In this document: in pieces, positions 30,849 through 47,781 of the stretch | Position numbering within the stretch: position 1 is the stretch's first letter | Layout: each line of letters begins with the position of its first letter | DNA from: Mycolicibacterium boenickei | GTDB taxonomy: Bacteria > Actinomycetota > Actinomycetes > Mycobacteriales > Mycobacteriaceae | DNA: 64,000 nucleotides | Assembly: GCF_010731295.1 (NCBI RefSeq) | Contig: NZ_AP022579.1 | Location: forward strand, 558,001 to 622,000 | Reading direction: 5' to 3' | Position numbers and translations under genes: made by a program | Notes under the pieces: model-generated | What the model was told of the DNA's origin: nothing | Database searches by the model: none | The model's input: only the letters and a program-made list of their open reading frames with translations

Positions 30849-32285
30849 CTACGCTCCGTTCCCGTCCAGCAGTGCCCACTGCGGACCGTCGGCGGTGTCG
30901 GTGACCTCGATGCCGGCCGCCTTGAGCCGATCTCGGATGGCGTCGGCCTCCGCCCAGTCACGATTGGTCCGGGCCTCGGCCCGGGCGGCCAGCGCCCACT
31001 GCACCAGTTCGTCGACGGCAGCCAGCGCGGCCGACGTCTCGTCGCGCGATTCCCAGCGCTCGTCGAGCGGGTCGCAACCCAGGATGCCCATCATCGCCCG
31101 GATCGAGGTGGCCTGCGCCATCGCGCCCGCGTGGTCCCCGGCGTCCAGCGCGCGGTTGCCCTCGGCGCGGGCGGCGTGCACCTCGGCCAAGGCCATCGGC
31201 ACCGCGAGGTCGTCGTTGAGGGCGGCGGCGAATTTCGGCGTCCAGTCGCCCACTGCGACGGCGCCGACCCGGTTGCGGACCCGGTGCAGGAAGTCCTCGA
31301 TGCCGCTGTAGGCCTTCACCGCGTCCTGCAGCGCGTTCTCGGAGAACTCCAGCATGGACCGATAATGCGCGCTACCCAGGTAGTAGCGCAGCTCGGCAGC
31401 GCGAACACGTTGCAGCACAGCGGGAATGGAGAGCACGTTGCCCAGCGATTTGCTCATCTTCTCGCCGCCCATGGTGACCCAGCCGTTGTGCAGCCAGTAC
31501 CGGGCGAAGCCGTCGCCGGCGGCCTGCGCCTGGGCGATCTCGTTCTCGTGGTGCGGGAACACCAGGTCCATACCGCCGGCGTGGATGTCGAACTCCGCGC
31601 CCAGATAGGCCTCGCACATCGCGACGCACTCGGTGTGCCAGCCGGGGCGTCCCCGGCCCCAGGGCGTCGGCCACGACGGCTCTCCCGGCTTGGCGCCCTT
31701 CCACAGCGTGAAATCGCGCTGATCGCGCTTACCCGTCGCCACACCCTCGCCCTGGTGCACATCGTCGATCCGGTGCCCGGACAGCGCGCCGTAATCGGGC
31801 AGGCTCAGCACGTCGAAGTAGACGTCCCCACCCTGCGCGTAGGCGTGCCCCTTCTCGATCAGCCGGTCGATGAGCTCGACCATCTGGGTGATGTGCCCGG
31901 TGGCCCGCGGCTCGGCCGACGGCGGAAGCACGCCCAGCGCGTCGTACGCGGCGCTGAACGCCCGCTCGTACGTGGCGGCCCACTCCCACCACGGCCGGCC
32001 TGCGTCGGCCGCCTTGTTGAGGATCTTGTCGTCGATGTCGGTGACGTTGCGGATGAACGCAACGTCGTATCCATTGGCGGTCAGCCAGCGGCGCAACACG
32101 TCGAACGCGACTCCGCTACGGACATGGCCGATGTGCGGCAAGCCCTGGACGGTGGCACCGCACAGGTAGATCGAAGCGTGCCCCGGCCGCAGCGGTACGA
32201 AATCTCGTACGGCACCCGCCATGGTGTCGTACAGCCGCAAATCGGAGGCAAACCCCGACGCGACGGCTTGAGCGCGATCGGTCAC
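30849..32285 (-). CDS. cysS: Cysteinyl-tRNA synthetase
   Basis: 478-residue class I synthetase with zinc Cys in [19 protein letters not shown] (HIGH motif), [15 protein letters not shown] and the KMSKS loop [13 protein letters not shown]. It charges tRNA-Cys. GTG start (MTDRAQAV). It carries a short insertion ([10 protein letters not shown]) near the N-terminus relative to the M. tuberculosis protein as I recall it. Downstream of ispDF. Confidence 0.95.
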
Positions 32286-32304
32286 GACGTGCCAGCTTAC
32301 CGGC

Positions 32305-32781
32305 CTATTCCGCAGGAACCACCAAAGCGCTGGCTATCGCGGCCAATCCTTCACCCCGGCCGGTCAGCCCGAGCCCGTCGGTGGTGGTGGCCGACACCGA
32401 CACCGGCGCCCCGATCAGCTCGGAGAGCAGCCGCTGTGCCTCATCCCGGCGCGGCCCGATCTTGGGCCGGTTGCCGATCACCTGGACGGTGGCATTGCCG
32501 ATCTCGAAGCCCGCCGCGTGCACTAGTCCGCGGACGTGACGCAACATGTCGGCGCCGGTGACCCCGCGCCATTCCGGCCGGTCGGTGCCGAACACCGCGC
32601 CGAGGTCACCGAGGCCGGCGGCACTGAGCAGCGCGTCGCACAAGGCGTGGGAGGCGACATCGCCGTCGGAATGGCCGGCGCAGCCGTCTGCGCCGTCGAA
32701 AAGCAGCCCCAGTAACCAGCAGGGGCGGCCCGGTTCGATCGGATGGACGTCGGTACCCAGCCCGACCCGTGGAATCAACAT
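32305..32781 (-). CDS. ispF: 2-C-methyl-D-erythritol 2,4-cyclodiphosphate synthase
   Basis: 158-residue MEP-pathway enzyme. Zinc ligands GTDVHPI and later His in [36 protein letters not shown] near the C-terminus. Overlaps the ispD end by 7 bases; together they make isoprenoid precursors. Confidence 0.95.
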
Positions 32782-33446
32782 GCGTCACGCGCCATGACGG
32801 CTTCGGCGAGCAACAGGTCCAGCGGAGTGGTGATCTTGAAGGCCAGCGGATCGCCCTCGACGATCTGCACCGGCGTACCGATCTGCTCGACGAGCGAGGC
32901 GTCATCGGTGACCGCGCCGGCACCGGCGCGTTGGTAGGCCCGGCGCAACACGTCGGCGCGGAAGCCCTGCGGGGTCTGTACGGCCCGCAGACCGGCCCGT
33001 TCCGGCGTCCCCAGCACCGCACCGTTGGCGTCGACCGCCTTGATCGTGTCGGCCAGTGGAAGGCCAGGAACGACGGCAGCGTGCCCGTCGGCCAGCGCCG
33101 CCACCACGCGAGCGATCAGCGTGGGAGGCGTCAACGCCCGGGCCGCGTCGTGAACGAGGACGAAATCGGCGTCCCCTGCGGCGGCCAGAGCCAATTCGAC
33201 CGATTCGGTTCGATCGGCTCCCCCGGCCACGATCCGCGCGCGCCCACCGAACACCAGGGTGGCTTCATCGGTGAGCGCGGGCGGTACCGCAACCACGACC
33301 TGGTCGATCACCCCCGAAGCCAGCAGCCCGTCCAGGGCATGCTCCAACAGGGGCTTGTCCCCCAGATTGACGAACGCTTTCGGTCTGCCCGCACCTAGCC
33401 GCTCACCGGAGCCGGCGGCCGGGACGACCGCGACAGTTGTTGCCAC
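32775..33446 (-). CDS. ispD: 2-C-methyl-D-erythritol 4-phosphate cytidylyltransferase
   Basis: 223 residues. Nucleotide-binding [18 protein letters not shown] at residues 8-25, [11 protein letters not shown] near 110, and [13 protein letters not shown]. Makes CDP-methylerythritol from MEP and CTP. GTG 33446 lies 6 bases after the carD stop, giving the carD-ispD-ispF order of M. tuberculosis. Confidence 0.95.
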
Positions 33447-33452
33447 GACGCG

Positions 33453-34238
<786 letters not shown>

Positions 34239-34817
34239 GTGAACCGCTTCGCAATGCGTGCCTCGGCCGGTCTGGCCGCATGTGGCCTGACCGCAGCCGT
34301 TCTCACCGGTTGCAGCGCCGGGCAGGTCTCCCAGACGGCGACCCAGGAGCCCGCCGTCAACGGTGTCAACGCACAGGCCGGCTCGATCGCGCTGCGCAAC
34401 GTGCACCTGCGCGCGCCGCAGCAGAAGGACTACGTCGAGCCCGGCTCCGAGGCCGAGCTGCTGTTCGTCGCAGCCAACGGATCCACCGAGGCGCCCAACA
34501 AGCTCGTCTCGATCAAGACCACCGTCGGCGACGTGGCGCTGACCGGGGATCAGACCATCCCGGCGGGTGGCGTCCTCGTGGTGGGCGAGCCCGACGGCCA
34601 GACCAAGCCGCTGGAGAAGGCCGAGGCCGCCGACGCCGTCACCGCCAAGGTCACCTTGACCAAGCCGGTCACCAACGGGCTGCTCTACGACTTCACGTTC
34701 AAGTTCGAGAACGGCGAGACGACTGTGGCCGTGCCGATCTCGGCAGGCGAGTCGCCCCGGCGCGACACCACCGGCGAGGAGCCCGGCGAGGGCCCCGCAG
34801 CCGGCGGCCATCACTGA
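34239..34817 (+). CDS. lpqE: Lipoprotein LpqE
   Basis: 192 residues with lipobox VLTGC after a signal ([15 protein letters not shown]). The mature part is a beta-rich domain ([60 protein letters not shown]) with a low-complexity tail ending GGHH. Position between carD and radA matches Rv3584. Function unknown; the terminal His pair hints at metal but is not evidence. Confidence 0.86.
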
Positions 34818-34897
34818 TCTGAGCTACCGCTGACCCGCGGGCCCCGACCGGCGCGTGCACACCGCCGATGTCGGGGCCACCGGTTACTGTCACGGGC

Positions 34898-36304
34898 GTG
34901 GCCGCTTCGAAAGTACGTTCGCAATACCGTTGCTCGGAATGTCAGCACGCCACCCCCAAATGGGTCGGCCGCTGCGCCAATTGCGGCACCTGGGGAACGG
35001 TCGACGAAGTAGCGACACTGGCACCGGTGGGCAGCCCTGTCCGCCGCTCGGTGGCCCCGACCTCGCCCGCCGTGCCGATCACCGCCATCGACCCTGGCAT
35101 CACCCGGCATTTCGCGACCGGGGTCAGTGAGCTGGACCGGGTCCTCGGCGGCGGCCTGGTGGCCGGTTCGGTCACGCTGCTGGCCGGGGAACCCGGAGTC
35201 GGCAAGTCCACCCTGCTCCTCGAAGTCGCCAATCGCTGGGCGCACACCGGCCGCCGCGCCCTCTACCTGTCCGGCGAGGAGTCCGCGGGCCAGATCCGGC
35301 TGCGGGCCGAACGCACCGGCTGCACGCACGACAACGTCTATCTGGCAGGCGAATCCGATCTGCAGATCGCCCTCGGTCACATCGACGAGGTCAAACCGAG
35401 CCTGGTGATCGTCGACTCGGTGCAGACCATGTCCACCACCGAAGCCGACGGCGTGACCGGCGGGGTGACGCAGGTGCGCGCGGTGACGACGGCGCTCACC
35501 GGCTACGCCAAGACCGCGGTCGGAGACCCGGCGGTGGCCATGATCCTGGTCGGCCATGTGACCAAGGACGGCGCCATCGCGGGCCCGCGCTCACTGGAGC
35601 ATCTGGTCGACGTGGTGCTGCACTTCGAAGGCGATCACACGTCGAGCCTGCGCATGGTGCGCGGGGTCAAGAACCGGTTCGGCGCCGCCGACGAGGTCGG
35701 CTGTTTTCAGATGCACGACAACGGAATCGAGTGCGTCAGCGATCCGTCCGGACTGTTCCTGGACCAGCGTCCGGCGGCGGTGCCCGGCACCGCCATCACG
35801 GTCACCCTCGACGGCAAGCGCCCCATGATCGGCGAGGTTCAGGCGCTCGTCGCCCAGCCGGTTGGGCCGCCCCGGCGGGTCGTCAGCGGAATCGACTCGG
35901 CCCGCGCGGCCATGATCGGCGCGGTACTGCAGACCCGGTGCGCCCTGCCGATCGGCAACAACGACATCTACCTGTCCACCGTCGGCGGCATGCGGCTGAC
36001 CGATCCGTCCTCGGATCTGGCCGTGGCGGTGGCCGTCGCCTCGGCCTACCTCGACATCGCGTTGCCGATGAACGCGGTGGCTATCGGTGAGGTGGGGCTC
36101 GTCGGCGATCTGCGCCGGGTCACCGGTATGGACCGCAGGCTGGCCGAGGCCGCCCGGTTGGGGTTCAACATTGCCGTGGTGCCGCCAGGGGTCACCAGCG
36201 CGCCGCCGGGACTGCGCGTCATCACCGTCGATCACATCGGGGCGGCGTTACGGGCACTCAAAGACATCGCGATTGCCAGCAATCAATCCCATCACGGACA
36301 ATAG
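34898..36304 (+). CDS. radA: DNA repair protein RadA
   Basis: 468 residues: N-terminal C4 zinc finger ([20 protein letters not shown]), RecA-like ATPase with Walker [10 protein letters not shown], RadA-specific KNRFG near 260, and a Lon-like C-terminal domain. Promotes branch migration in recombination. GTG 34898 was chosen because TACTGT ends 7 bases upstream, a leaderless arrangement, and homologues begin near this point; an ATG at 34868 would add 10 residues. disA follows by 21 bases. Confidence 0.94.
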
Positions 36305-36325
36305 CGGCCGACCCTAGGAGAGCTG

Positions 36326-37444
36326 ATGGCCGTGAACTCCGGCGCCAGGACCAGCCGCACCGTCGTGCATCTGGCTCGGCCGACGCTACGAGAAACCCTC
36401 GGCCGCCTGGCGCCCGGTACCCCGCTGCGCGACGGCCTGGAACGCATCCTGCGCGGCAAGACGGGCGCGCTGATCGTGCTCGGCTACGACGACAGCGTGG
36501 AGACCATCTGCGACGGCGGATTCGCCCTCGACGTGCGGTATGCCCCCACCCGGTTGCGCGAGCTGTCGAAGATGGACGGCGCGGTGGTGCTGTCCAGCGA
36601 CGGCAGCCGGATAGTGCGGGCCAACGTCCAGCTGGTGCCTGATCCATCGATCCCCACTGACGAGTCCGGGACCCGCCACCGCTCGGCCGAGCGCACCGCG
36701 ATCCAGACCGGTTACCCGGTGATCTCGGTGAGCCATTCGATGAGCATCGTGACGGTCTACGTCGCCGGGGAGCGCCACGTGGTGCCCGATTCGGCGACCA
36801 TCCTGTCCCGGGCCAACCAGACCATCGCGACGCTGGAGCGCTACAAGGGCCGGCTCGATGAGGTCAGCAAGCAGCTGTCGACCGCAGAGATCGAAGACTT
36901 CGTGACGCTGCGCGACGTCATGACCGTGGTGCAGCGCCTGGAGATGGTGCGCCGCATCAGCCTTGAGATCGACGCGGACGTCGTCGAACTCGGCACCGAC
37001 GGACGCCAGCTCAAACTGCAGCTCGACGAACTCGTCGGCGACAACGAGGCCGCCCGCGAGCTGATCGTGCGGGATTACCACGCCCTTCCGGATCCGCCGA
37101 CGGCCGCGCAGGTGCACTCGACGCTCGATGAGCTGGATGCCCTGACCGACAGTGAGCTGCTCGACTTCACCACGCTGGCAAGGGTTTTCGGCTATCCGTC
37201 GACGTCCGAGGCGCAGGACTCGGCGATGAGCTCACGCGGCTACCGCGCCATGGCAGGGATACCGCGACTGCAGTTCGCCCACGTCGATCTGTTGGTCCGC
37301 TCGTTCGGCTCACTGCAGGGGCTGCTGGCCGCCAGCGCGGACGATCTGCAGTCCGTCGACGGCATCGGGTCGATGTGGGCCCGGCACATCCGTGAGGGCC
37401 TGTCGCTGCTGGCCGAGTCGACCATCGCCGACCGGCTGGCCTGA
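36326..37444 (+). CDS. disA: DNA integrity scanning protein DisA (diadenylate cyclase)
   Basis: 372 residues. The DAC domain carries [13 protein letters not shown] and [11 protein letters not shown] (catalytic DGA and RHR motifs), then a helical linker and C-terminal helix-hairpin-helix DNA-binding domain ([19 protein letters not shown]). Makes c-di-AMP from two ATP. ATG after GGAGAG, directly behind radA as in M. tuberculosis. Confidence 0.95.
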
Positions 37445-37447
37445 GCC

Positions 37448-38230
37448 TCAGTTACCCGGCGTGGGCGTCTCCGCCGCCGGCGCGCCCTCAGCAGCGGGCG
37501 GTGCAGGCTGTTGCGGGTTGGCCTGCGCCAGGATGAACGGCACCGGCGCCGATCTGAGGTTGCCAAGCTGCACCATCAGGTTGTAGGTGCCGGGACCGAT
37601 CGGCTGACGGGGCATCGGGCACTGCGGCGCCGACCCCATGCCGGTCCAGGTCACCTCGGTGGTGACCTGCTCACCGGGGTTGAAGGTCTTCACCAGGGTC
37701 TCGTTGGACGGTGCGCAGTCCAGGTTCGACCACAGCCGGTTGTTGTCCAGCGAGTACACGTAGGCGGCCAGCACCGCGGCACCCACGTCCCGCTTGCAGG
37801 CCACCAGGCCGATGTTGGTCACGACCATGGTGAACTTCGGCTGATCGCCCACGACGTACTCGGGCTGGCTGGTGATGCCCTTGACCGCGAGCGTGGAATC
37901 CGGGCAGTCGTCGCCCTCTTTGAGCAGCGGCGGCGGCGTGACGGCAGCGGTCGGCGTGGCCGTCGGCGGCGGCGCGTGCTGAGCCGGCGGCACCACCGGG
38001 GTCTTCACCTCGGGATTCTCGCCCGGCAGCGGCGTCGGAGGGGCAGCCGCGGCAGAGGGTTCGTCAGCTGACTTGGTCTCGGCTCCGGAGCTGCTGGTCA
38101 TGATCACCGCGACGATCGCGGCGATGATCCCCACGACCACCACCGCGATTCCGATGGCCAGCGCACGGCGCCGCCAGTAAATCTGCGAGGGCAGTGGCCC
38201 ATGAGGTTCGAGATCTAACACGGCTTTCAC
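37448..38230 (-). CDS. Membrane-anchored proline-rich protein (Rv3587c homologue)
   Basis: 260 residues: short cytoplasmic part, one membrane helix (IGIAVVVVGIIAAIVAVIMT, residues 26-45), a Pro/Thr-rich linker, then a soluble extracytoplasmic domain with paired Cys (GDDCPDSTLAVKG; LVACKRDVG; NLDCAPSNE; PQCPMPRQ), likely disulfide-bonded. Function unknown. GTG 38230 is only 14 bases from the start of the divergent small ORF in the TnpB-like locus, so its native promoter region appears to have been replaced by that insertion. Confidence 0.85.
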   Translation of the reverse strand: MKAVLDLEPHGPLPSQIYWRRRALAIGIAVVVVGIIAAIVAVIMTSSSGAETKSADEPSAAAAPPTPLPGENPEVKTPVVPPAQHAPPPTATPTAAVTPPPLLKEGDDCPDSTLAVKGITSQPEYVVGDQPKFTMVVTNIGLVACKRDVGAAVLAAYVYSLDNNRLWSNLDCAPSNETLVKTFNPGEQVTTEVTWTGMGSAPQCPMPRQPIGPGTYNLMVQLGNLRSAPVPFILAQANPQQPAPPAAEGAPAAETPTPGN

Positions 38231-38244
38231 GGTAAGCCCAGGTC

Positions 38245-38469
38245 ATGCCGGGTTGTCCGAGGCGCCTCGGCGTGTCGGGCTTGTCGGTATGTGGAGTTAG
38301 CGTCGAGGTGCTGCATGAGCGTGGGGACAAGTCGCTGCTGGAGGAGCTGATGGACGACTTCATAGCGTTGCTGGCATCGTTTTCGGGCCGTTTCTACCAA
38401 CTGCGGTCCCGGCAGAATCAACAGCGGCTGCTCGACGCGGCCGTTGGGCGATTACCACAGCGGTCCTGA
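38245..38469 (+). CDS. Small ORF preceding and coupled to the tnpB-like gene
   Basis: 74 residues; the segment LLEELMDDFIALLASFSGRF then YQLRSRQNQQRLLDAAVGRL looks genuinely coding. A GTG at 38308 is an alternative start that would drop the less plausible first 21 residues. Its stop (38467-38469) is one base before the GTG GTG start of the TnpB-like gene, in a different frame. It may be a separate partner protein or the detached N-terminus of a once longer TnpB-like protein split by a +1 shift; the two cannot be told apart here. Confidence 0.55.
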   Translation: MPGCPRRLGVSGLSVCGVSVEVLHERGDKSLLEELMDDFIALLASFSGRFYQLRSRQNQQRLLDAAVGRLPQRS

Positions 38470-38470
38470 C

Positions 38471-40237
38471 GTGGTGATTCAGTCTGCGGTGCCGTTGCGG
38501 ATCTCCGTGGCGGTCGACGACGCGACTGGCGAGGCCATCTCTATCGACGCCCGGATAGGGTGGCTTTTGGACCTGGTCGAGCAGCTCAGCACCGAGTTGA
38601 TGCAGTCGCTTTGGCAGCCCGCGACGTTCGCTGCGCTCCATGGTGGGGTTGATGGGCTGGGCCGCAGATTGCCCTCGACTGCCGCGGCGGCCGCCGCGCG
38701 ATTGGGCTGGGTACCCACACCCCCGATCGGGGTGTACGTCCCGTCGCGGGTAGTGCGATTGGCCCAAGCGAACGTGGTGCCGGTATTGAGAACGATCGCC
38801 TTTCGGGATGCGCTGATCGGCCCGGTGATCGCCGCCCTCGACGAGCACGGCCGACTCGATCGCCGGCGTCTCGGACAGGACCGGGCCCGGTATGTGCCCT
38901 CGGCGTTCCTGCGCAACCTATGCCGCCAGTTGAGCCATCCCCGCGGCGCAGTCGTGACCTCGATCGTCCAGATTCAGAACCAACCCACGGTAGCGCGGAT
39001 CGCCCGGCTGGGGGCGGCCGATGGCCAGCTGGTCGAGCTGAACGCCGCGGATCCGGCCGGGGTGTGGCTCCGCATCAAACTGCCGACCAGCGCGGCGCCA
39101 ACTGGGCGCGGTGAATGGTCGTGGTGTCGGCTGTGGTGCCCGCTCCCGCCGCATCTGAAAGAACGTGACATCGCTTGCTGGCATCTGCCAACACTCAGCG
39201 TGCAGCGCGGTAGACCGTTGTTGCGGTTCACCATCTCCGAAATCGTTCCCGATCCGGCCACTGCCGCCGCGGCCGCAGCGTTGGGGATCGACTGGTGCCC
39301 ATCCTCCCTGGGCTCGGCGACCGTGGTCGTCGAATGTGCCGGACAGCTATTCACCGACGCAGCCACACACGTGTACAACGATCGCGGTCTGGGCATCAAG
39401 CTTGCCCGGCTGCAGGCCGAGGGCCAGGCGTTGACCGGCAAGATCGCCCGACTGACGAAACTCGCCGCCAACGCTGCTGAACCCACGCGCGCCCAATTGA
39501 CCGCCAAAATCGAGACCCTGCACGACAACCGGCGGGCGCTGGGCGCCAAACGGCGACGGATCAATCGGGACATGGCGTTCGACTTCGCCGTCACCATGAC
39601 CACGATGGCCACTACCTCAGGCGCTGGGGTGATCGCGGTGGAAGACTTGCGCGACCTGGAATCGACTGGCCGAGGCCGCGCCAACAACAACCGAGCGGCC
39701 CAATCAGCCCGCCGCCGGGCGGTCGTGGCGCTTGAGCACACCGCCGCCAGAGCCGGTCTGGAAGTCGTGATGTGCCCACCACGGGGCACATCAGCGAACT
39801 GTTCCAGCTGCGATCAGGAGCTGACCCGTCCCGGCGGGTATCACACCGCAACATGCGAACGCTGCGGCATCCGAGGTGCAAACCGTGACCAGATCGCGGG
39901 TCAGAACATCGCCAAACGCGTTCTACTGGCCAAGGCGAAAGTCAAGCGGCCCAAAGGAAAACCGAAACGAGTTACCACCGTCGAGCACCAGCCGGTACGC
40001 AAAACCCGGCGCAAAACCACCGCCACACCGAAACAACGCCGCCACAAACGAGTGCGGCGCACGATCCCGCGACCGCTGGTGGCCACCCGGCCACCAAGCC
40101 CATCGTTCGTTCCTGCACGTGCAGCGTCCGTGTGGGACAGAGACCAGCAACCCGCCACCACAGCGGCGAGCACCTCTGCACAACCGATCCCCGACACCGG
40201 CGACACCCATGTGTCAGCAAATGTCAGAGACCGATAG
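38471..40237 (+). CDS. TnpB-like RuvC nuclease family protein (IS605 OrfB type)
   Basis: 588 residues from GTG 38471 (TTG 38444 would add nine). C-terminal half is TnpB-like: RuvC-I Asp in LGIDWCPSS (codon 39290), long coiled region KIARLTKLAANAAEPTRAQL, RuvC-II Glu in VEDLRDLE (codon 39641), zinc ribbon CSSCDQELTRPGG and TCERCGIRG, RuvC-III Asp in ANRDQIAGQNIAKR (codon 39887). The catalytic triad looks intact. A basic, low-complexity tail of about 100 residues follows. No tnpA, serine recombinase or CRISPR array is adjacent. Longer than typical TnpB (about 400). Its end overlaps canB by 14 bases. Guide-RNA endonuclease activity is inferred from the family. Confidence 0.8.
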   Translation: MVIQSAVPLRISVAVDDATGEAISIDARIGWLLDLVEQLSTELMQSLWQPATFAALHGGVDGLGRRLPSTAAAAAARLGWVPTPPIGVYVPSRVVRLAQANVVPVLRTIAFRDALIGPVIAALDEHGRLDRRRLGQDRARYVPSAFLRNLCRQLSHPRGAVVTSIVQIQNQPTVARIARLGAADGQLVELNAADPAGVWLRIKLPTSAAPTGRGEWSWCRLWCPLPPHLKERDIACWHLPTLSVQRGRPLLRFTISEIVPDPATAAAAAALGIDWCPSSLGSATVVVECAGQLFTDAATHVYNDRGLGIKLARLQAEGQALTGKIARLTKLAANAAEPTRAQLTAKIETLHDNRRALGAKRRRINRDMAFDFAVTMTTMATTSGAGVIAVEDLRDLESTGRGRANNNRAAQSARRRAVVALEHTAARAGLEVVMCPPRGTSANCSSCDQELTRPGGYHTATCERCGIRGANRDQIAGQNIAKRVLLAKAKVKRPKGKPKRVTTVEHQPVRKTRRKTTATPKQRRHKRVRRTIPRPLVATRPPSPSFVPARAASVWDRDQQPATTAASTSAQPIPDTGDTHVSANVRDR

Positions 40238-40856
40238 ACGCTTCGCCGATGTTGCCCAGGTGGCTGCGCAGTTCCACGTGCCCGTCCGACAGGTGGTACG
40301 TGGCGCCGACGATGGCCTGGGTGCCCGCGGCCAGGCCGTTGGCGATCGCGGACGAGCGCATCTGCAGCTGGCTGACCGTTTCCTTGACGTGGAAGGCCTC
40401 GAACTCGTCGACGCGGGTCAGGCCGGAATGCCGGCCCATGAGGATCGACGGGGTGACGCGCTCCACGATGTCGCGTACGTAGCCGCCGGGCACCTGACCT
40501 TCGTCGAGGGCGGTGATCGCGGCCTTGACCGCGCCGCAGCTGTCGTGGCCGAGGACCACGATCAGCGGCACCTCCAGGATGGAGACCGCGTACTCGATCG
40601 AACCCAGCACCGCGTTGTCGATGACGTGGCCGGCGGTGCGCACCACGAACATGTCGCCCAGGCCCTGGTCGAACAGCAACTCGGCGGCGACGCGGCTGTC
40701 ACCGCAGCCGAACACCACCGCGGTGGGCTTCTGCCCGTGCGTCAGCTTCGCCCGACGGGCGATGTCCTGGCTGGGGTGCTGCGGTTCGCCTGCGACAAAG
40801 CGGGCGTTACCGTCCTTGAGTGCCTTCCAAGCGGACACCGGATTCGAGTTGGGCAT
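40224..40856 (-). CDS. canB: Beta-carbonic anhydrase CanB
   Basis: 210 residues with zinc and active-site motifs VVFGCGDSRVAAELLFDQ and LGHDSCGAVKAA. Hydrates CO2 to bicarbonate. ATG 40856 (MPNSNPVSAWKALKDGNARF) matches M. tuberculosis CanB; upstream open frame ignored. C-terminus appears intact despite the overlap with the TnpB-like gene. Divergent from mutY. Confidence 0.94.
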   Translation of the reverse strand: MPNSNPVSAWKALKDGNARFVAGEPQHPSQDIARRAKLTHGQKPTAVVFGCGDSRVAAELLFDQGLGDMFVVRTAGHVIDNAVLGSIEYAVSILEVPLIVVLGHDSCGAVKAAITALDEGQVPGGYVRDIVERVTPSILMGRHSGLTRVDEFEAFHVKETVSQLQMRSSAIANGLAAGTQAIVGATYHLSDGHVELRSHLGNIGEASIGL

Positions 40857-40881
40857 GCCAGCCATTCTGCATGAGGCTGCG

Positions 40882-41754
40882 ATGAGCATCGACCCTGGCG
40901 AATTAGTAGGTTGGTATGAATCCGCCCAGCGTGACCTGCCGTGGCGTCGACCAGGCGTTTCCGCCTGGCAGATCTTGGTCAGCGAATTCATGCTGCAGCA
41001 GACGCCGGTGGCGCGCGTCGAGCCGATCTGGCTGGCCTGGATCGAGCGGTGGCCCACACCGTCGGCCACCGCGGCCGCCGGGTCCGCCGAGGTGCTGCGC
41101 GCCTGGGGAAAGCTGGGCTACCCGCGCCGGGCCAAGCGCCTGCACGAATGCGCAGTGGTGATCGCCACCGAGTACGGCGACGAGGTGCCGGCCGACGTCG
41201 ACACGCTGCTGACGCTGCCCGGCATCGGCGCCTACACCGCGCGTGCGGTGGCCTGCTTCGCGTATTCGGCCAGCGTGCCGGTGGTCGACACCAACGTGCG
41301 CCGCGTGGTGACCAGGGTGCTGCACGGCCAGGCAGACGCGCCGGCCCGGGCCCGCGACCTCGAAGACGTCGCCGCTCTCCTGCCCGATGAGGAAACCGCA
41401 CCGACCTTCTCGGCCGCGCTCATGGAACTGGGTGCGGTGGTGTGCACCTCTCGGGCACCGCAGTGCGGGATCTGCCCACTGAGCCGGTGCCGTTGGCGCA
41501 CCGCGGGCTATCCGGCCGGGACGGTCGCCAAGCGGGTGCAGCGGTATGCCGGGACGGACCGCCAGGTTCGGGGCAAGCTGCTGGACGTGTTGCGCGACAG
41601 CAGTTCTCCGGTCACCCGGGCCCAGTTGGACGTGGTCTGGCTCACCGACACCGCCCAACGCGACCGGGCTCTCGACTCACTTCTGGTCGACGGGTTGGTG
41701 GAGCAGACCGCCGACGGTCTCTTCGCCCTGGCCGGCGAAGGTGAAATTCCATGA
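40882..41754 (+). CDS. mutY: A/G-specific adenine glycosylase MutY
   Basis: 290 residues. HhH-GPD glycosylase: WQILVSEFMLQQTPVARV, LPGIGAYTARAVACFAY with catalytic Asp in VVDTNVRR, and the 4Fe-4S loop CTSRAPQCGICPLSRC (C-x6-C-x2-C-x5-C). The C-terminal part lacks an obvious NUDIX domain, as in mycobacterial MutY. ATG 40882 has GAGG upstream; an in-frame ATG at 40855 is possible. Confidence 0.92.
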   Translation: MSIDPGELVGWYESAQRDLPWRRPGVSAWQILVSEFMLQQTPVARVEPIWLAWIERWPTPSATAAAGSAEVLRAWGKLGYPRRAKRLHECAVVIATEYGDEVPADVDTLLTLPGIGAYTARAVACFAYSASVPVVDTNVRRVVTRVLHGQADAPARARDLEDVAALLPDEETAPTFSAALMELGAVVCTSRAPQCGICPLSRCRWRTAGYPAGTVAKRVQRYAGTDRQVRGKLLDVLRDSSSPVTRAQLDVVWLTDTAQRDRALDSLLVDGLVEQTADGLFALAGEGEIP

Positions 41755-41815
41755 GATCGGCATGAATCCGTTCCGCGGCACACCATTTGGGCGTTGCTTC
41801 ACATAGAACGGAGCT

Positions 41816-42121
41816 ATGTCAAGCAAATTCTTCGCGACCATTGCGTGTACTGCGATGGGCCTTGGCGCCGGCCTGGGCCTGGCGGCGACCGCGAACGCCG
41901 CACCGGCGGGCACCGGTTCAGCCGCCGACACCGTGCGTGACCTGCAGAGCCGGGGCTATCACGTGCAGGTCAACTCGAACGCCAATACGGCCCTGTCGAA
42001 TTGCCGGGTGACCGGGGTGCACGGACTGGCCGACTCCAACATCGACGACAACGGGTACCGCATCGACTCGGCGCAGCACACCACGGTCTACGTGAACGTG
42101 GCCTGCCAGCCCGACGGCTGA
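41816..42121 (+). CDS. Small secreted protein of unknown function
   Basis: 101 residues with signal peptide (FATIACTAMGLGAGLGLAAT, cleavage near ANAAPA). Mature part of about 70 residues has two Cys (SNCRVTG, VACQPDG) that could pair, and resembles small mycobacterial exported proteins of unknown role (TVRDLQSRGYHVQVN). Five bases before the convergent glxA-like gene. Confidence 0.78.
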   Translation: MSSKFFATIACTAMGLGAGLGLAATANAAPAGTGSAADTVRDLQSRGYHVQVNSNANTALSNCRVTGVHGLADSNIDDNGYRIDSAQHTTVYVNVACQPDG

Positions 42122-42125
42122 CGCA

Positions 42126-43097
42126 TCACGCGGTGACGGCTTCTTCGGCTGCACCACAGGCGAATTGACGCCGGTAGTCCGACGGTGTCACGCCGATGAG
42201 CCGGCGGAAGTGATGGCGCAGCAGCGTCGCGGTACCGAACCCGGCCTGGCCGGCGATCCGATCGATGTCGAGATCGGACTCCTCCAGCAGCCTGCGTGCG
42301 TACAACACCCGCTGATCGGTGATCCACTGCATGGGCGTGGTGCCGGTCTCCTCGACGAACCGGCGGGCGAACGTGCGCGTGGACATCGCGGATCGCCTGG
42401 CCAAGGTCGTCACAGTGTGCGGCTTGTCCAGGTTCCCCATGATCCAGTCCAGATGCGGCGCAAAGCCTTCCGAGCACCGGACCGGGATCGGCTGATCGAT
42501 GAACTGGCGTTGCCCGCCGTCCCGCTGCGGAGGGACCACCATGCGCCGCGCGATCTTGTTGGTGACCTCGCTGCCGAGTTCGCGGCGAACCAGATGCAGG
42601 CACGCATCGATGCCCGCCGCGGTACCCGCACTGGTGATCAGGTTTCCGTCGTCGACGAACAGGACGTTGCGGTCCACCTTGGCCGTCGGATACTTGCGGG
42701 CCAGCGCGTCGGCGTGCATCCAGTGCGTGGTGCACGGCCTGCCGTCGAGCAGGCCCGCCGCGCCGGCGAGAAAGGCGCCCGAGCACACGGTCAGGATGAT
42801 CGAGCCCGCATCGGCGGCGGCCCGCACAGCCTCCAACGCCTCGGGTAGGTAGTCGGAGGTGCCGATGGCCGGGATCGCCACCAGGTCGGCGCCCTGGAGG
42901 GCATCCAGCCCGTGCTCAGGCGTCAGGGTGGCCCCGACCGACGTCCGTAGCGGCTTGCCAGGTTCGGGCCCGCACACCTTGAAGTCGAAGTTGGGGACCC
43001 CGTCCGCGGACCGGTCGATTCCGAAAACCTCGCAGATGACCCCGAACTCGAAAACGGCCAGGCCATCGAGCACCAGCGTGGAGACGCTTCTCAGCAT
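42126..43097 (-). CDS. GlxA-type regulator (DJ-1/PfpI domain plus AraC HTH)
   Basis: 323 residues: N-terminal DJ-1/PfpI-like domain (VLDGLAVFEFGVICEVFGID; nucleophile-elbow-like TVCSGAFLAGAAGLLDG) and C-terminal AraC helix-turn-helix (TTLARRSAMSTRTFARRFV; AGQAGFGTATLLRHHFRRL). Family members regulate catabolic or stress genes. Target unknown; the divergent small membrane-protein gene at 43169 is the nearest candidate. Confidence 0.9.
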   Translation of the reverse strand: MLRSVSTLVLDGLAVFEFGVICEVFGIDRSADGVPNFDFKVCGPEPGKPLRTSVGATLTPEHGLDALQGADLVAIPAIGTSDYLPEALEAVRAAADAGSIILTVCSGAFLAGAAGLLDGRPCTTHWMHADALARKYPTAKVDRNVLFVDDGNLITSAGTAAGIDACLHLVRRELGSEVTNKIARRMVVPPQRDGGQRQFIDQPIPVRCSEGFAPHLDWIMGNLDKPHTVTTLARRSAMSTRTFARRFVEETGTTPMQWITDQRVLYARRLLEESDLDIDRIAGQAGFGTATLLRHHFRRLIGVTPSDYRRQFACGAAEEAVTA

Positions 43098-43168
43098 GGC
43101 AGTATTTTATCGCAAGGTGTCAGCGCTGCCACTGTTGGCGGTATATTTCCCCGACAAGCATTACTGCC

Positions 43169-43411
43169 ATGACTGTTGCACTCGCTCTGATCATCCTGAT
43201 CTCACCCTTCGCGGTCGCCGCGGCAGTGGGCTGGGCGGCACAGCGCAGCAATATCCTGCGGTTCCGCCTCGATCTGTTCGACATGCCTTTCAACGCCGGC
43301 CAACCCGACTACGAGGCATACCGTGCCGGCCACGACCTCGACGCGATCCGCAGCCGCTTCGAACACCAGCCGTCATGGCCGAGTGCGGGCGTTCTAGGCG
43401 AGCGCCGATAG
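43169..43411 (+). CDS. Small membrane protein of unknown function
   Basis: 80 residues with one N-terminal hydrophobic segment (VALALIILISPFAVAAAVGW) and a charged remainder containing RLDLFDMPFNAGQPDYEAYR. Conserved-looking composition but no recognised domain. Divergent from the glxA-like gene; its last 18 bases overlap the convergent hydrolase gene. Confidence 0.6.
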   Translation: MTVALALIILISPFAVAAAVGWAAQRSNILRFRLDLFDMPFNAGQPDYEAYRAGHDLDAIRSRFEHQPSWPSAGVLGERR

Positions 43412-44155
43412 GAACCCGGTCACCGCTTCGCGGTACACCTCGGGCGCGTCGTCGTGGATCAGGTGACCCGCCCCGGGAACGTGCAAATACCTTGTGTCCT
43501 TCCCGATCTCGGCCATCTCGCGCATCTGCCCGGGCGGCGCCACCGAATTGCCCGCCTCGATGAGCAAGGTCGGAACCTGTACCTCTCGCCACTGCTGCCA
43601 ATAGTCGCGCGTCCCCCATTGGGCAGCGATGTCCAGCCACCACTGCGGATACCCGTGCAGCCGCCAGCCGGTGGCCGTCCGGTCGAACGCCTCCAGGAAG
43701 TACCGGCCCGCGACGGGCCCGAACTCGTCGTAAACCTCCTGCGCCGAACCGAACTCGACCGGGAGGGCGTGCACCCACGGCTCCCACGGCCCGGTGGTAC
43801 GGCCACGGAAATCGGGGGCCATGTCCTCGACCACCACCGCGCGAGCCAGTTCCGGACGGGCCGCGGCCAGGCACCACGAATGCAACGCACCCATGGAATG
43901 CCCCACCAAGATCACCGGCCGCCCCAGCCCGGCGACGGCATCACCGAGATCGGTGACGAAACGCTCGGTGCTGATCGGATACGGGTCGACCACGTCGCGC
44001 CCTCGGTGCCATGGCGCGTCGTATGTGTAGACCTCCCCCAACCCGGTCAACCAGGGCAATTGGCGCGACCAGGTGCTGCCGCGGCCCATCAGGCCGTGCA
44101 CCAGAACGATGGGCTCGCCACGGCCCCCTCGGCGGGTGAGCAGATCTGTGACCAT
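43394..44155 (-). CDS. Alpha/beta hydrolase (Rv3591c-like)
   Basis: 253 residues with VLVHGLMGRGSTW oxyanion motif, nucleophile GHSMGALHSW, and GAGHLIHDDAPEVY with the catalytic His. Substrate unknown. ATG 44155 (MVTDLLTRRGGRGEP). Divergent from mhuD with 39 bases between, as in M. tuberculosis (Rv3591c/Rv3592). Confidence 0.88.
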   Translation of the reverse strand: MVTDLLTRRGGRGEPIVLVHGLMGRGSTWSRQLPWLTGLGEVYTYDAPWHRGRDVVDPYPISTERFVTDLGDAVAGLGRPVILVGHSMGALHSWCLAAARPELARAVVVEDMAPDFRGRTTGPWEPWVHALPVEFGSAQEVYDEFGPVAGRYFLEAFDRTATGWRLHGYPQWWLDIAAQWGTRDYWQQWREVQVPTLLIEAGNSVAPPGQMREMAEIGKDTRYLHVPGAGHLIHDDAPEVYREAVTGFLSALA

Positions 44156-44194
44156 CCCGTTATCTTGCCGGGCAGCCACGGTAGCCTGAACACC

Positions 44195-44512
44195 ATGCCC
44201 GTCGTGAAGATCAACGCCATCGAGGTCCCGCCCAATGCCGGCCCGGAACTGGAGAAGCGGTTCGCGAACCGTGCACATGCTGTCGACAGCCAGCCCGGCT
44301 TCCTCGGCTTCCAACTGCTCCGCCCGGTCAAGGGCGAAGACCGCTACTTCGTGGTGACGCAGTGGGAAACCGAAGAGGCCTTCCAGGCCTGGGCTTCGGG
44401 CCCGGCCGTGGAGGCCCACAAGGGCCAGGCGGCCAAGCCTGTGGCCACCGGCGCATCGCTGCTGGAGTTCGAGGTTGTGCTGGACGTTGCAGGGCCCGCT
44501 GCCCAGGCGTAG
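44195..44512 (+). CDS. mhuD: Haem-degrading monooxygenase MhuD
   Basis: 105 residues, ABM fold. Catalytic Asn7, Trp66 and haem ligand His75 are all present (MPVVKIN; EAFQAW; AVEAH). MhuD degrades haem to mycobilin with iron release. Strong match to the M. tuberculosis protein. lpqF begins inside its 3' end. Confidence 0.95.
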   Translation: MPVVKINAIEVPPNAGPELEKRFANRAHAVDSQPGFLGFQLLRPVKGEDRYFVVTQWETEEAFQAWASGPAVEAHKGQAAKPVATGASLLEFEVVLDVAGPAAQA

Positions 44513-45851
44513 CCGCGGCCGGACGCTGCGCCGCACTGTTGGCCTGACGGCCATCACAGCGGTCGCCGCGGCCCTGGCTTGTGGCTGTTCGCCGTCCGTC
44601 GCGCCCGCGGCAGAAGTGTCCTACGGCGCGCACATCGACACCATCACCCCGCCTGGTCTGCGGGCCAAGCAGACGATGGACATGCTCAACTCCGACTGGC
44701 CGATCGGGCCCATCGGCGTGCGGACCCTCGCCGCACCCGAGAAGGTCGATCTGGTGGGCACCAAGATGGACTCCATCTGGTGGGATCGCCCGTTCAAGGT
44801 CACCTCGGTCGACATCGGGGCCGCACAGGCGACGCTGCACGTGCAGACGTCGTACAACGTCGCCCAGGACATCGAGCTCCGCACCAACGATGTCGGTCTC
44901 GTCGACCGTTTCGAGGTCAACCTCGTGCCCCCGAAGATCGACAAGTGGTCCGACATCGATGCCGAGCTGACCAAGTCGGGTGCGCGGTACTCGTACCGGG
45001 TGTCGAAGGTCAACAACGGCAAGTGCGAGCAGGTCGCAGGCACCAACACCGAGATGTCGCTGCCGCTGGCCTCGATCTTCAAACTGTATGTGCTGCTTGC
45101 GGTTTCAGATGCGGTCAAGGCCGGGACGCTGAGCTGGGACGATCACCTCACGATCACCAAGGAAGGCAAGAAGCTCGGTTCGGCCGGGCTGGACAAACTT
45201 CCCCCCGGCGCCCAGATCACCGTGCGGACCGCCGCCCAGCAGATGATCTCGGCCAGCGACAACATGGCCACCGATCTGCTGATCGGGCGGATGGGCCCGG
45301 CGGCGGTGGAACGCGCACTGGTGACCGCAGGCCATCACGATCCGGCCAGCATGACCCCGTTCCCGACCATGCACGAGGTGTTCTCGGTCGGTTGGGGGCA
45401 ACCGAATCTCCGCGACAAGTGGAAGACGGCCTCCCCGGCTGATCGGGTGGCACTGCTGCAGCAGACGAATTCCCGCCCCTACGAACCAGATCCGTACCGG
45501 ACCCACACCCCGGCCTCCAACGACGGCCTGGAGTGGTTCGCCAGCGCGGCTGACATCTGCCGGGTGCATGCCGCCCTGCAGGCCTCGGCCTACGGTGCCG
45601 CCGCGCCGGTGAAAGACATCCTGTCGGCGCTGCCGGGCATCGACCCGGATCCGGCGAAGTGGCGCTACATCGGAGCCAAGGGCGGCAATCTGCCCGGCGA
45701 CCTGACCTTCAGCTGGTACGCAGTGGACTACACCGGCCAGCCGTGGGTGTTCAGTTTCCAGCTGAACTGGCCGAAGTTCCGCAGCCCCACCGCCGCGGGC
45801 TGGTTACTGCAGATCGCCAAGCGCGCGTTCGCCATGGCGCCCGTGGGCTAA
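44475..45851 (+). CDS. lpqF: Lipoprotein LpqF, serine beta-lactamase-like
   Basis: 458 residues. Signal with lipobox ALACGC, an N-terminal adhesin-like domain, then a class A beta-lactamase-like domain with LPLASIFKLYVLLAVSDAV (S-x-x-K) and SASDNMATDLLIG (SDN). Likely a surface-anchored esterase or peptidase-like protein; beta-lactamase activity is not implied. TTG 44475 (GGAG 8 bases upstream) chosen; TTG 44487 is the alternative. It overlaps mhuD by 38 bases. Confidence 0.88.
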   Translation: MCWTLQGPLPRRSRGRTLRRTVGLTAITAVAAALACGCSPSVAPAAEVSYGAHIDTITPPGLRAKQTMDMLNSDWPIGPIGVRTLAAPEKVDLVGTKMDSIWWDRPFKVTSVDIGAAQATLHVQTSYNVAQDIELRTNDVGLVDRFEVNLVPPKIDKWSDIDAELTKSGARYSYRVSKVNNGKCEQVAGTNTEMSLPLASIFKLYVLLAVSDAVKAGTLSWDDHLTITKEGKKLGSAGLDKLPPGAQITVRTAAQQMISASDNMATDLLIGRMGPAAVERALVTAGHHDPASMTPFPTMHEVFSVGWGQPNLRDKWKTASPADRVALLQQTNSRPYEPDPYRTHTPASNDGLEWFASAADICRVHAALQASAYGAAAPVKDILSALPGIDPDPAKWRYIGAKGGNLPGDLTFSWYAVDYTGQPWVFSFQLNWPKFRSPTAAGWLLQIAKRAFAMAPVG

Positions 45852-45964
45852 CTGCTGGTTCGGCGCCTCGCTGCGCCGGTTTCTGCCTCAAGGCTGTGGT
45901 CGTCGCCGAATGACAACCTCGGGGTAGAAACGGACGTCCCGGTCGACAGATCCTGCGGCGGAAA

Positions 45965-46516
45965 CTAGCTGCTGCTCCGCAGCGTCCAGGCGTGGCCGCG
46001 GAAGTTCATGACGGTGCGGCTCATCGGTGCGATGTCGATGCGCCAGAACGATTTTGGCGGGGCATCCAGGGCCACCAGGATGGCAGCCCTGACCACCGCG
46101 GGGTGGGTGACGGCGACCAGCCGTCCTCGCTCCGAGGCCAGGCCGTCCATCCAGCCGTGCACCCGATTGACGAGGTCGACCACGGATTCACCACCGTGCG
46201 GCGCCCGGGCCGGATCGGTCAGCCAGACCGCCAGGTCTGCCGGCGGGACGCCGCCGAGCACAGCTCCGCGCCAACTCCCGAAGTCCAGGTCGGCCAGCCG
46301 GGGTTCGACCGCCGCCGACAGCCCCAGCAGTTCCGCGGTCTGGCGGGCCCGTTTCTCCGGCCCGCAGCACGCGGTGTCGATGACACCGAGTTCAACGGCA
46401 GCGTCAGCCTGACGGTGGCCCAACGCATTCAGCGGTTCGTCGGTGGGAAATCGTCCGGCCGCCGTGGCATCGGTCATGGCGTGCGACACCAACGTCAGCC
46501 GGACGACCTCACTCAT
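45965..46516 (-). CDS. CobC-like histidine phosphatase with altered RHG motif
   Basis: 183 residues of the phosphoglycerate mutase/CobC family. The usual RHG reads SHAM (VSHAMTDATAAG), so the catalytic His is present but the flanking Arg and Gly are replaced. Second His in AVTHPAVVRAA, and LDFGSWRG resembles the CobC pattern. It is the last gene behind cobalamin-riboswitch-controlled cbtB-cbtA (6 bases after cbtA), which favours a corrinoid role such as alpha-ribazole phosphate dephosphorylation; loss of Arg makes activity doubtful. Confidence 0.72.
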   Translation of the reverse strand: MSEVVRLTLVSHAMTDATAAGRFPTDEPLNALGHRQADAAVELGVIDTACCGPEKRARQTAELLGLSAAVEPRLADLDFGSWRGAVLGGVPPADLAVWLTDPARAPHGGESVVDLVNRVHGWMDGLASERGRLVAVTHPAVVRAAILVALDAPPKSFWRIDIAPMSRTVMNFRGHAWTLRSSS

Positions 46517-46522
46517 CGAAGT

Positions 46523-47290: not shown

Positions 47291-47313
47291 TTTGTCGCCG
47301 AATCTCCGCTGCG

Positions 47314-47529
47314 TCAGTGGCAGGGGAAACCGAGCAGGTGGCGGGCGTCGTGCACGAACTCGTGCACGTAGGTGTTGTTGCCCAGCACAGAGGTTGCGCC
47401 CTGGTCCATCCCGACGAAGTAAAGGGCCAACAGCGCGACGAACGCGGTCAGGGTCAGCCAGAGCACCGCCTTGGTTGCCGAGAGGTCGATCGGCCGGGCC
47501 TGGCCCTTGCGTACGTCAGTGGAAGCCAT
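47314..47529 (-). CDS. cbtB: CbtB cobalt transporter subunit
   Basis: 71 residues with one membrane helix (AVLWLTLTAFVALLALYFVG) and the CbtB C-terminal metal motif YVHEFVHDARHLLGFPCH. ATG 47529 with AGGA upstream. First gene after the cobalamin riboswitch. Confidence 0.9.
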   Translation of the reverse strand: MASTDVRKGQARPIDLSATKAVLWLTLTAFVALLALYFVGMDQGATSVLGNNTYVHEFVHDARHLLGFPCH

Positions 47530-47564
47530 CGAGAGGTCCTTTCCGGGAATTCGCGTCCCAGTCC

Positions 47565-47645
47565 GTGTCGTGACAGGTCGGGTCTGACTGTTAACAGTGG
47601 CGCGGCCGTCCTGGACTCTCACCAGGTTCCGTTTGCCTGTCGATT
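47565..47645 (-). ncRNA. Cobalamin riboswitch upstream of cbtBA
   Basis: On the minus strand the conserved core reads CCTGGTGAGAGTCCAGG, then CGCGCCACTGT, then AGTCAGACCCG (B12 box). A P1 helix pairs GACAGG (47641-47636) with CCTGTC (47577-47572). A -10 TAGGAT at 47654-47659 would start transcription at its 5' edge. It lies 36 bases before the cbtB ATG. Confidence 0.9.
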
Positions 47646-47781
47646 ACAACAGCATCCTAACCACGGCGCAGGAGATCGCCGTATACCGCAACCGCGCCCA
47701 CTGCGTGAAAACGCAAATAACCGCAGGTGACGCGTTTTTCAAACGCGGTGTTTCGGCGAATCGGTGCCACATAATCACGCG

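What the first reader, a model, noticed from the sequence alone, without database searches (positions are those of the whole stretch)
38245..40237. Two-ORF TnpB-like locus with no transposase partner, inserted between conserved core genes
A 588-aa TnpB-like protein has an intact-looking RuvC triad (Asp 39290, Glu 39641, Asp 39887) and zinc ribbon. A 74-aa ORF with coding character ends one base before its GTG. No tnpA, serine recombinase or CRISPR array is near. From memory, Rv3587c and canB are adjacent in M. tuberculosis, so this is an insertion. The unusual N-terminal half (about 270 aa before RuvC-I), basic tail and small upstream protein suggest a specialised guide-RNA nuclease family or a domesticated element.
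Basis: partly seen in the sequence, partly recalled or inferred. Interest (0 to 1): 0.72.

Follow-up and report, generated by a model that had tools for sequence, protein, structure and literature searches.

The report
Stranded IS607 TnpB with truncated transposase
A small jumping gene landed at the end of a carbonic anhydrase gene in a mycobacterium and lost most of its transposase, while its probable RNA-guided DNA-cutting protein and the guide-RNA segment still look intact.

Summary
The 588-aa protein is an IS607-type TnpB with intact RuvC triad and zinc ribbon. The 74-aa "small protein" is no partner gene: it is 11 host codons and a junction codon fused to the last ~60 codons of a lost IS607 transposase (tnpA). 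The insertion is real: 24 of 24 other same-genus loci fetched have the empty canB/Rv3587c-like junction. The right end sits at a CAG^GCT site on the canB stop codon and gives canB a new stop. Left end, about 70% of tnpA and 19 bp of host DNA are gone, and no intact tnpA of this kind was found in the genome, so the copy probably cannot move. Its last 133 nt look like a conserved reRNA scaffold with three helices and a pseudoknot; the guide would be the canB 3' end. In relatives, mostly Rhodococcus, tnpB outlives tnpA: of 35 assessable copies 27 have open tnpB, and none of those 27 has open tnpA (two copies outside that set speak against a strict rule). So: a stranded member of a little-described IS607 TnpB subfamily, probably a nuclease, not a new two-gene system. 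RNA-guided cutting is inferred, not shown.

The parts
38280..40242 (+). IS607-family element remnant: 3' stub of tnpA, full tnpB, right end (RE); left end missing
   Evidence: blastn against related elements and against empty sites of sibling genomes
38245..38469 (+). 74-aa chimeric ORF: 11 host codons and a junction codon (38245-38280) fused in frame to the C-terminal ~60 codons of IS607 tnpA
   Evidence: NF033518 E 4.6e-6, phrog_6620 E 4.4e-7; 90% identity to TnpA residues 147-205
38471..40237 (+). tnpB, 588 aa
   Evidence: PF07282, NF040570 (below cut-off), phrog_506; Foldseek Cas12f/TnpB fold
39290..39292 (+). RuvC Asp274
   Evidence: invariant in 20 of 20 aligned sequences
39641..39643 (+). 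RuvC Glu391
   Evidence: invariant in 20 of 20 aligned sequences
39887..39889 (+). RuvC Asp473
   Evidence: invariant in 20 of 20 aligned sequences
39800..39865 (+). zinc ribbon CxxC...CxxC (Cys444-Cys465)
   Evidence: invariant cysteines
40110..40242 (+). predicted reRNA (omegaRNA) scaffold, almost wholly inside the tnpB 3' coding end
   Evidence: covariance model built from 25 non-mycobacterial copies finds it as the one window hit at E 1 or better, 57.3 bits, E 1.3e-14; pair counts
40113..40135 (+). stem-loop 1 (40113-40119 with 40129-40135)
   Evidence: 99.7% of cells paired, 49 sequences
40123..40128 (+). pseudoknot strand AGCGTC in the loop of stem-loop 1
   Evidence: AGCGTC in 49 of 50 RE tails; complementary to 40237-40242
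40138..40178 (+). stem 2 (40138-40142 with 40174-40178)
   Evidence: two pairs with double-sided changes, between clades
40202..40215 (+). stem-loop 3 (40202-40206 with 40211-40215)
   Evidence: 97.1% of cells paired
40237..40242 (+). RE terminal GACGCT: pseudoknot strand; GCT (40240-40242) is the core shared by LE, RE and target
40243..40262 (+). predicted guide segment (host DNA, 3' end of canB, antisense to it)
   Evidence: position after the scaffold; 21 of 22 nt match the empty site of G021 behind CAGGCT; length is inferred
38277..38282 (.). left deletion junction (host to 38279, element from 38280); 19 nt of host DNA present in the two nearest siblings are absent
   Evidence: L014, L015 empty sites
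40224..40871 (-). canB-like carbonic anhydrase; the insertion replaced its stop, product now ends ...NIGEA-SIGL with a stop from the RE
   Evidence: PF00484 (scanned as 40224-41069); empty sites in L014/L015 read ...GCCTGA on this strand
37448..38230 (-). Rv3587c-like gene, left neighbour (host)
   Evidence: ORF list; name taken from the finding and recall

Best explanation
A single IS607-family element inserted through its serine recombinase at a CAG^GCT site overlapping the canB stop codon. Its RE, with the reRNA scaffold at the 3' end of tnpB, was joined precisely to the canB 3' end, so the guide carried by the reRNA is canB sequence. A later deletion removed the LE, about 70% of tnpA and 19 bp of host DNA and left a probably immobile tnpB-reRNA unit with a 74-codon chimeric leader. 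If expressed, TnpB would process the 3' end of its own transcript into a reRNA and cut DNA that carries an (A/G)GGCT motif followed by the canB end, i.e. an unoccupied allele, but not its own locus, where the RE (ACGCT) replaces that motif. This favours retention of the element. Shown: anatomy, insertion site, truncation, conserved reRNA structure. Inferred: expression, cleavage, motif use, order of events, retention.
For: TnpB and TnpA domain matches. Precise RE junction and empty sites. Core GCT at LE and RE: a pattern called 37 LEs in 58 copies, G before the core in 33, GCT core in 32; by eye 5 of the 37 are spurious. Pre-insertion site CTCAG-GCT-TCGCC in sibling G021 fits. reRNA: AGCGTC in 49 of 50 tails; 98.9% of cells paired in 49 tails, reached by 0 of 500 shuffles; a model of 25 non-mycobacterial tails finds the window tail; fourfold sites identical 51/62 in the tail against 461/793 in the body. 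tnpB dN/dS 0.18-0.22 among window, G124 and CBMA copies. No intact tnpA found in the genome: no IS607 transposase over the cut-off, only the stub at E 1e-10.
Against: No expression or cleavage data. The window tail folded alone is unremarkable (z -0.8). Double-sided changes fall mostly between two clades, so few independent events; on the two measures counting pairs and types, 5 and 9 of 500 shuffles reach the observed value. The RE ends were located by a GACGYT-like motif, so its constancy is partly by construction, and 25 of 71 non-redundant copies without it were dropped; L063, the one tail without AGCGTC, was not in the pair count. The pseudoknot hardly varies. The protein model is of middling quality (pLDDT 69). 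The left junction reads GGGCT (38277-38281), which looks like the core and is not explained by a plain deletion. The window's species has one genome here, so fixation is unknown.
Confidence: 0.82

Rival explanations
1. Non-autonomous mobile unit: the left end at 38279 is a real, alternative left end (GGGCT), and the tnpB-RE unit was mobilised in trans.
For: Left junctions of window and G124 both carry GGGCT and lie within about 20 nt of each other in tnpA. Rhodococcus holds tnpA-less copies with a true LE (L060, L063, L134, L135, L143, L144).
Against: The sequence behind the window's GGGCT is tnpA codon 147 onward and lacks the LE motif seen in the full-length and tnpA-less copies; 19 nt of host DNA are missing, which a precise IS607 insertion would not do; no tnpA for trans action found in the genome.
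Confidence: 0.08
2. Domesticated TnpB kept for a host function, e.g. antisense or guide-directed control of canB.
For: Open frame and intact triad without transposase; in relatives, 27 of 35 assessable copies keep tnpB with tnpA broken or missing; a transcript through the RE would run antisense into canB (inference).
Against: Only 3 of 297 sampled genus genomes, the own one included, have the gene, and at different places; no orthologous site in another mycobacterium among the 24 loci; catalytic triad intact, unlike TldR regulators (definition recalled).
Confidence: 0.06
3. Dead fossil: recently inserted, truncated, not expressed, and simply not yet decayed.
For: Single copy, LE side deleted; frame preservation alone needs no activity if the event is young.
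Against: Does not explain the same pattern in relatives, where most tnpA remnants are in several pieces while tnpB is open; cannot be excluded for this copy.
Confidence: 0.25
4. A specialised two-gene guide-RNA nuclease with a small partner protein.
For: Two adjacent ORFs with stop and start one base apart.
Against: The small ORF is the tnpA C-terminus joined to host DNA; no tnpA trace in the CBMA copy and in several Rhodococcus copies.
Confidence: 0.02

Closest known systems
IS607-family elements with reRNA-guided TnpB, ISXfa1 (Yoon et al. 2023, PMC10711439; passages read)
   Same: TnpA serine recombinase plus TnpB; reRNA from the RE; the base flanking the RE belongs to the scaffold; pseudoknot between the scaffold end and the loop of stem-loop 1
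   Different: Core here looks like GCT instead of GG; expected motif (A/G)GGCT instead of GGG; tnpA truncated in the window
ISFba1 and RAGATH-18-associated IS607 TnpBs (Ren et al. 2024, PMC11061315; passages read; author name recalled)
   Same: IS607 TnpB nuclease with AG-rich motif (AGGAG or GAGGG) beside the LE; 30% of their TnpAs reported as pseudo
   Different: ISFba1 TnpB is 387 aa and its reRNA starts 13 nt downstream of tnpB; here TnpB is 588 aa, the scaffold lies inside the coding end and the RE ends 5 nt after the stop codon; 0 of 27 open-tnpB copies keep tnpA; no Rfam match up to E 0.5
ISDra2 TnpB (Karvelis et al. 2021, PMC8612924; passages read)
   Same: reRNA overlaps the tnpB 3' end, guide from the flank, RuvC nuclease
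   Different: IS200/IS605 type with Y1 TnpA; 408 aa
Mycolicibacterium plasmid copies on pTY81_01 and pCBMA213_1
   Same: about 75% identical TnpB and the same RE
   Different: pTY81_01 has two near-identical full-length copies, one with intact tnpA, both with tnpB in pieces; pCBMA213_1 shows no tnpA
IS1341-type tnpB-only elements (recalled)
   Same: tnpB without tnpA
   Different: Those go with IS200/IS605 (recalled); this one is of IS607 origin

Membership tests
TnpB (RNA-guided nuclease family) | RuvC D-E-D triad and C4 zinc ribbon | tested here: met
   invariant in 20 of 20 aligned sequences; PF07282 above cut-off
TnpB (RNA-guided nuclease family) | match to NCBIfam guided_TnpB at the curated cut-off | tested here: not met
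   41.2 bits against 100, residues 353-483 only: divergent member; the cut-off is a naming rule, not a definition of the family
TnpB (RNA-guided nuclease family) | Cas12f/TnpB-like fold | tested here: met
   Foldseek: AsCas12f 8j12 E 2.1e-11 (TM 0.38-0.49), ISFba1 TnpB 8iaz E 2.5e-7, with a model of pLDDT 69
TnpB (RNA-guided nuclease family) | reRNA from the element's right end | tested here: inconclusive
   conserved structure and covariation support it; no transcript was seen
TnpB (RNA-guided nuclease family) | RNA-guided DNA cleavage | not testable with these tools
   needs the bench
IS607 family | tnpA serine recombinase upstream of tnpB | tested here: met
   for the lineage: intact in pTY81_01 copy b; in the window only the last ~60 codons
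IS607 family | insertion without target duplication at a short matching core | tested here: met
   RE junction at CAG^GCT, no duplication; LE side deleted in the window, so seen on both sides only in relatives
IS607 family | complete, self-mobile element (LE, tnpA, RE) | tested here: not met
   LE and about 70% of tnpA missing: a remnant
IS200/IS605 family | Y1 transposase partner | tested here: not met
   the stub matches the IS607 serine transposase
TldR (nuclease-dead TnpB regulators) | broken RuvC triad (recalled) | tested here: not met
   triad intact
Type V CRISPR (Cas12) | adjacent CRISPR array | tested here: not met
   no repeat array found within 30000-48000 (direct repeats of 20 nt or more, copies at most 120 nt apart); two weak two-copy families only

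The most novel reading that the evidence does not exclude
This subfamily persists as transposase-free RNA-guided nucleases: after tnpA dies, tnpB and its reRNA stay under purifying selection at fixed sites, each copy guarding its own insertion by cutting empty alleles, with tnpB sequences exchanged among copies by gene conversion. The window copy would be a mycobacterial example that protects an insertion in the canB stop codon.
Probability: 0.25. Interest if true: 0.7.

Novelty: new variant of a known kind. Interest (0 to 1): 0.42.

Why it matters
The copy itself is an ordinary stranded element. The subfamily is more telling: in relatives with at least 11 copies in one genome, open tnpB did not go with open tnpA in any of the 35 assessable copies, which makes the question why TnpB outlives its transposase testable. 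The anatomy (scaffold inside the coding end, pseudoknot strand starting in the stop codon, core GCT, predicted motif (A/G)GGCT) also gives a concrete guide-RNA hypothesis for a long TnpB type for which I saw no test in the papers listed.

Tried and rejected
Rejected or left open: (1) Frameshifted single gene: tnpA and tnpB are separate in full-length copies. (2) Alternative left end at 38279: kept as a rival; the sequence behind it is tnpA, not LE. (3) Same truncated element at two mycobacterial sites: window and G124 left ends differ by about 20 nt and the flanks differ; the empty site of G124 was not found among five loci of relatives of its neighbour gene, so its left flank is unresolved. 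(4) Known RNA family: no Rfam match up to E 0.5 in 37000-41500. (5) Phage carriage: no tblastn match in 50,697 phage records. (6) Folding energy of the single tail: not significant. (7) Same-site Rhodococcus pairs as a clean test of selection: tnpB there is a mosaic more diverged than its flanks, so dN/dS of 0.30-0.34 mixes conversion and descent. (8) A first genome-contig scan with the single protein confirmed nothing (24 pattern matches, none a relative); the scan with alignment A1 found 46 loci.

Results against a strict tnpA/tnpB exclusion: L129 (left out, contig ends inside tnpB) has intact tnpA and about 360 open residues of tnpB; the distant Streptomyces mirabilis plasmid copy L010 (31%) has both open. 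The loci were found through tnpB peptides, so badly decayed tnpB is under-sampled. Guide matches: of 24 sibling loci, 3 have AGGCT before the best match (L014, L019, L021); the second nearest sibling, L015, has the site but several mismatches to the guide.

Full report
What is there. The window lies in a 6.6-Mb genome of the Mycobacterium group (gene order disA, Rv3587c-like, canB, mutY; names recalled or from the finding, except carbonic anhydrase, PF00484). At 38471-40237 + is an open frame of 588 codons. It matches PF07282 (E 4e-9, above the cut-off), NCBIfam guided_TnpB (41.2 bits, below the cut-off of 100) and phrog_506. The D-E-D triad (Asp274, Glu391, Asp473) and four zinc-ribbon cysteines are invariant in all 20 aligned sequences. 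A profile of these finds Cas12g, Cas12f and, weaker, Fanzor2 chains in the PDB. An AlphaFold model from 17 sequences (mean pLDDT 69, pTM 0.49, residues 489-588 below 50) is closest by Foldseek to AsCas12f (E 2e-11); ISFba1 TnpB is among the matches (E 2.5e-7). It is the only copy in the genome at E 0.001. No CRISPR-like array was found within 30000-48000.

The small ORF. The 74-aa ORF (38245-38469) matches positions 145-187 of the IS607 transposase model (E 4.6e-6, below the cut-off) and is 90% identical over residues 147-205 to the intact TnpA of plasmid pTY81_01. Homology to related elements starts at 38280; what lies before it, including the ORF's ATG, matches host DNA of sibling genomes. 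So it is a host-tnpA fusion, not a partner gene. G124 has a similar stub ORF (78 aa) with a different upstream part.

The insertion. canB was sought in 41 genomes. In all 24 same-genus loci fetched besides the window's own, canB and the Rv3587c-like gene lie side by side with no such insert. In the two nearest siblings (G021, G020) host homology runs to window 38279 and resumes at 40240, with 19 nt in between that the window lacks. The five mycobacterial copies, the window's included, share the right end (...GATAGAC, then GCT in four and GTT in one). Full-length copies show the left end: host (A/G)G, then GCT, then a conserved LE before tnpA. A pattern called 37 LEs in the 58 copies whose upstream side could be read: base before the core G in 33, the one before that A in 26 or G in 6, core GCT in 32 and GCG in 5; by eye five of the 37 calls are spurious. 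The sibling empty sites read CTCAG-GCT-TCGCC, so insertion at CAG^GCT is the simple reading, followed by a deletion from 38279 to about tnpA codon 147 that took the LE and 19 nt of host DNA. canB lost its own stop; the RE supplies one four codons later (...GEA-SIGL-stop). A 37-nt solo RE in G021 gives another ORF the same end (...LASIGL-stop). The left junction reads GGGCT, which resembles the core; I treat this as unexplained.

The guide RNA. RE ends were located in 46 of 71 non-redundant copies outside the genus by a GACGYT-like motif and added to four mycobacterial ones; the 25 copies without the motif (9 distant ones; the rest cut by contig ends, broken, or with a variant end such as L046) were dropped, so constancy of the end is partly by construction. 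In these 50 tails the hexamer AGCGTC lies about 120 nt before the end in 49, and the end is GACGCT in 47, GACGTT in 2, AACGCT in 1. The two are complementary. RNAalifold on 49 tails (all but L063, the one without AGCGTC) gives three helices, with AGCGTC in the loop of the first. With the pseudoknot added, 98.9% of 1121 cells pair and five pairs show double-sided changes; 0 of 500 shuffles reach the share of paired cells or the covariation score, 5 and 9 of 500 reach the numbers of pairs and of pair types; slid structures pair in 23-45%. Most double-sided changes separate the four mycobacterial sequences from the others, so they are few events. A covariance model from 25 non-mycobacterial tails finds window 40110-40242 with 57.3 bits, E 1.3e-14, as the only window hit at E 1 or better, and the three other mycobacterial REs given to it; it did not report the solo RE of L097. 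Fourfold-degenerate sites among window, G124 and CBMA copies are identical in 51 of 62 cases in the tail and 461 of 793 before it (p 1.3e-4; pairs are not independent). In L064, L073 and L074 the tnpB frame is shifted or ended before or in the tail, yet the tail is kept. A comparable pseudoknot was shown to matter in ISXfa1 (PMC10711439, passages read), where the flanking base also belongs to the scaffold. The window tail folded alone is unremarkable (z -0.8).

Predicted action. The guide would be canB sequence from 40243. Of 24 sibling loci, three have AGGCT before the best match to the first 22 guide bases: L014 (21 of 22), L021 (20) and L019 (19); the others match 15-18. The occupied locus has ACGCT instead of AGGCT, so it would be spared if the motif includes that G. 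IS607 TnpBs tested by others use AGGAG or GAGGG (PMC11061315) or GGG (PMC10711439).

The family. TnpB relatives at E 1e-10 or better: 3 of 297 genus genomes, 21 of 401 family genomes, 2 of 200 order genomes, the own genome counted each time and the samples overlapping; 9 plasmid records at E 1e-5; no phage record. A scan of genome contigs gave 46 loci, 44 of them Rhodococcus, 11 in R. koreensis DSM 44498. Of these 46, 35 hold both sides of the element; 11 were left out (L109, L114, L129-L133, L136, L137, L143, L144). tnpB is open for at least 520 codons in 27 of 35; tnpA has a single open piece of at least 180 of 207 residues in 1 of 35 (L128, whose tnpB is broken); so 0 of 27 open-tnpB copies keep tnpA. 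Most tnpA remnants are in two or more pieces, a few are missing. The loci were found through tnpB peptides, which favours recognisable tnpB, and copies within a genome are not independent. Of 11 genomes searched with TnpA, a full-length open match occurs in two (G206, G831), not in those of R. koreensis, R. jostii, R. opacus or R. wratislaviensis (matches at E 1e-10). dN/dS of tnpB (Nei-Gojobori) is 0.18-0.22 among the three mycobacterial copies. Ren et al. report 30% pseudo-TnpA among their IS607 loci (PMC11061315), so the tendency is known; I saw no description of its strength in this subfamily in the listings. Against strict exclusion: L129 and L010 (see Tried and rejected).

Verdict. An ordinary event (insertion, then truncation) involving a long IS607 TnpB subfamily for which I found no test. 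Identity is well supported; nuclease action and retention are inferences from relatives and from other IS607 TnpBs.

Noticed in passing
L104/L119, L102/L110, L114/L126: Rhodococcus copies at the same site in two genomes are more diverged in tnpB than in their flanks: flanks 88-94% (first two pairs) with tnpB patches of 70-80%, and 98% downstream flank with tnpB windows of 81-93% (third pair). Looks like gene conversion among tnpB paralogues.
   Followed up: partly
L097:1501-1537 (G021 contig 35): A 37-nt solo right end, 92% identical, at the 3' end of another ORF (L097:773-1519), again ending ...ASIGL-stop: a possible scar of a lost copy in the sibling species.
   Followed up: partly
L060, L063, L134, L135, L143, L144: IS607 elements without detectable tnpA but with a left end of the usual kind (AG-GCT-cacaacagtcg or close) 134-410 nt before tnpB, in several Rhodococcus genomes: non-autonomous tnpB-only units.
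   Followed up: partly
L075-L080 (G796): Six related copies in one genome with open tnpB; remnants from the first ~58 tnpA residues were found in four of the six, none in the other two.
   Followed up: partly
L044, L045 (pTY81_01): Two near-identical full-length copies on one plasmid: one with intact tnpA, the other with one extra G in tnpA; tnpB is in pieces in both.
   Followed up: partly
window 38277-38281: The left deletion junction reads GGGCT, like the recombination core; the G124 left end also carries GGGCT.
   Followed up: partly
G000:C1:5684691-5684981 (L081): Fragment of another IS607-type tnpA (84.9 bits), followed by a frame that by eye looks TnpB-like; not of this subfamily.
   Followed up: no
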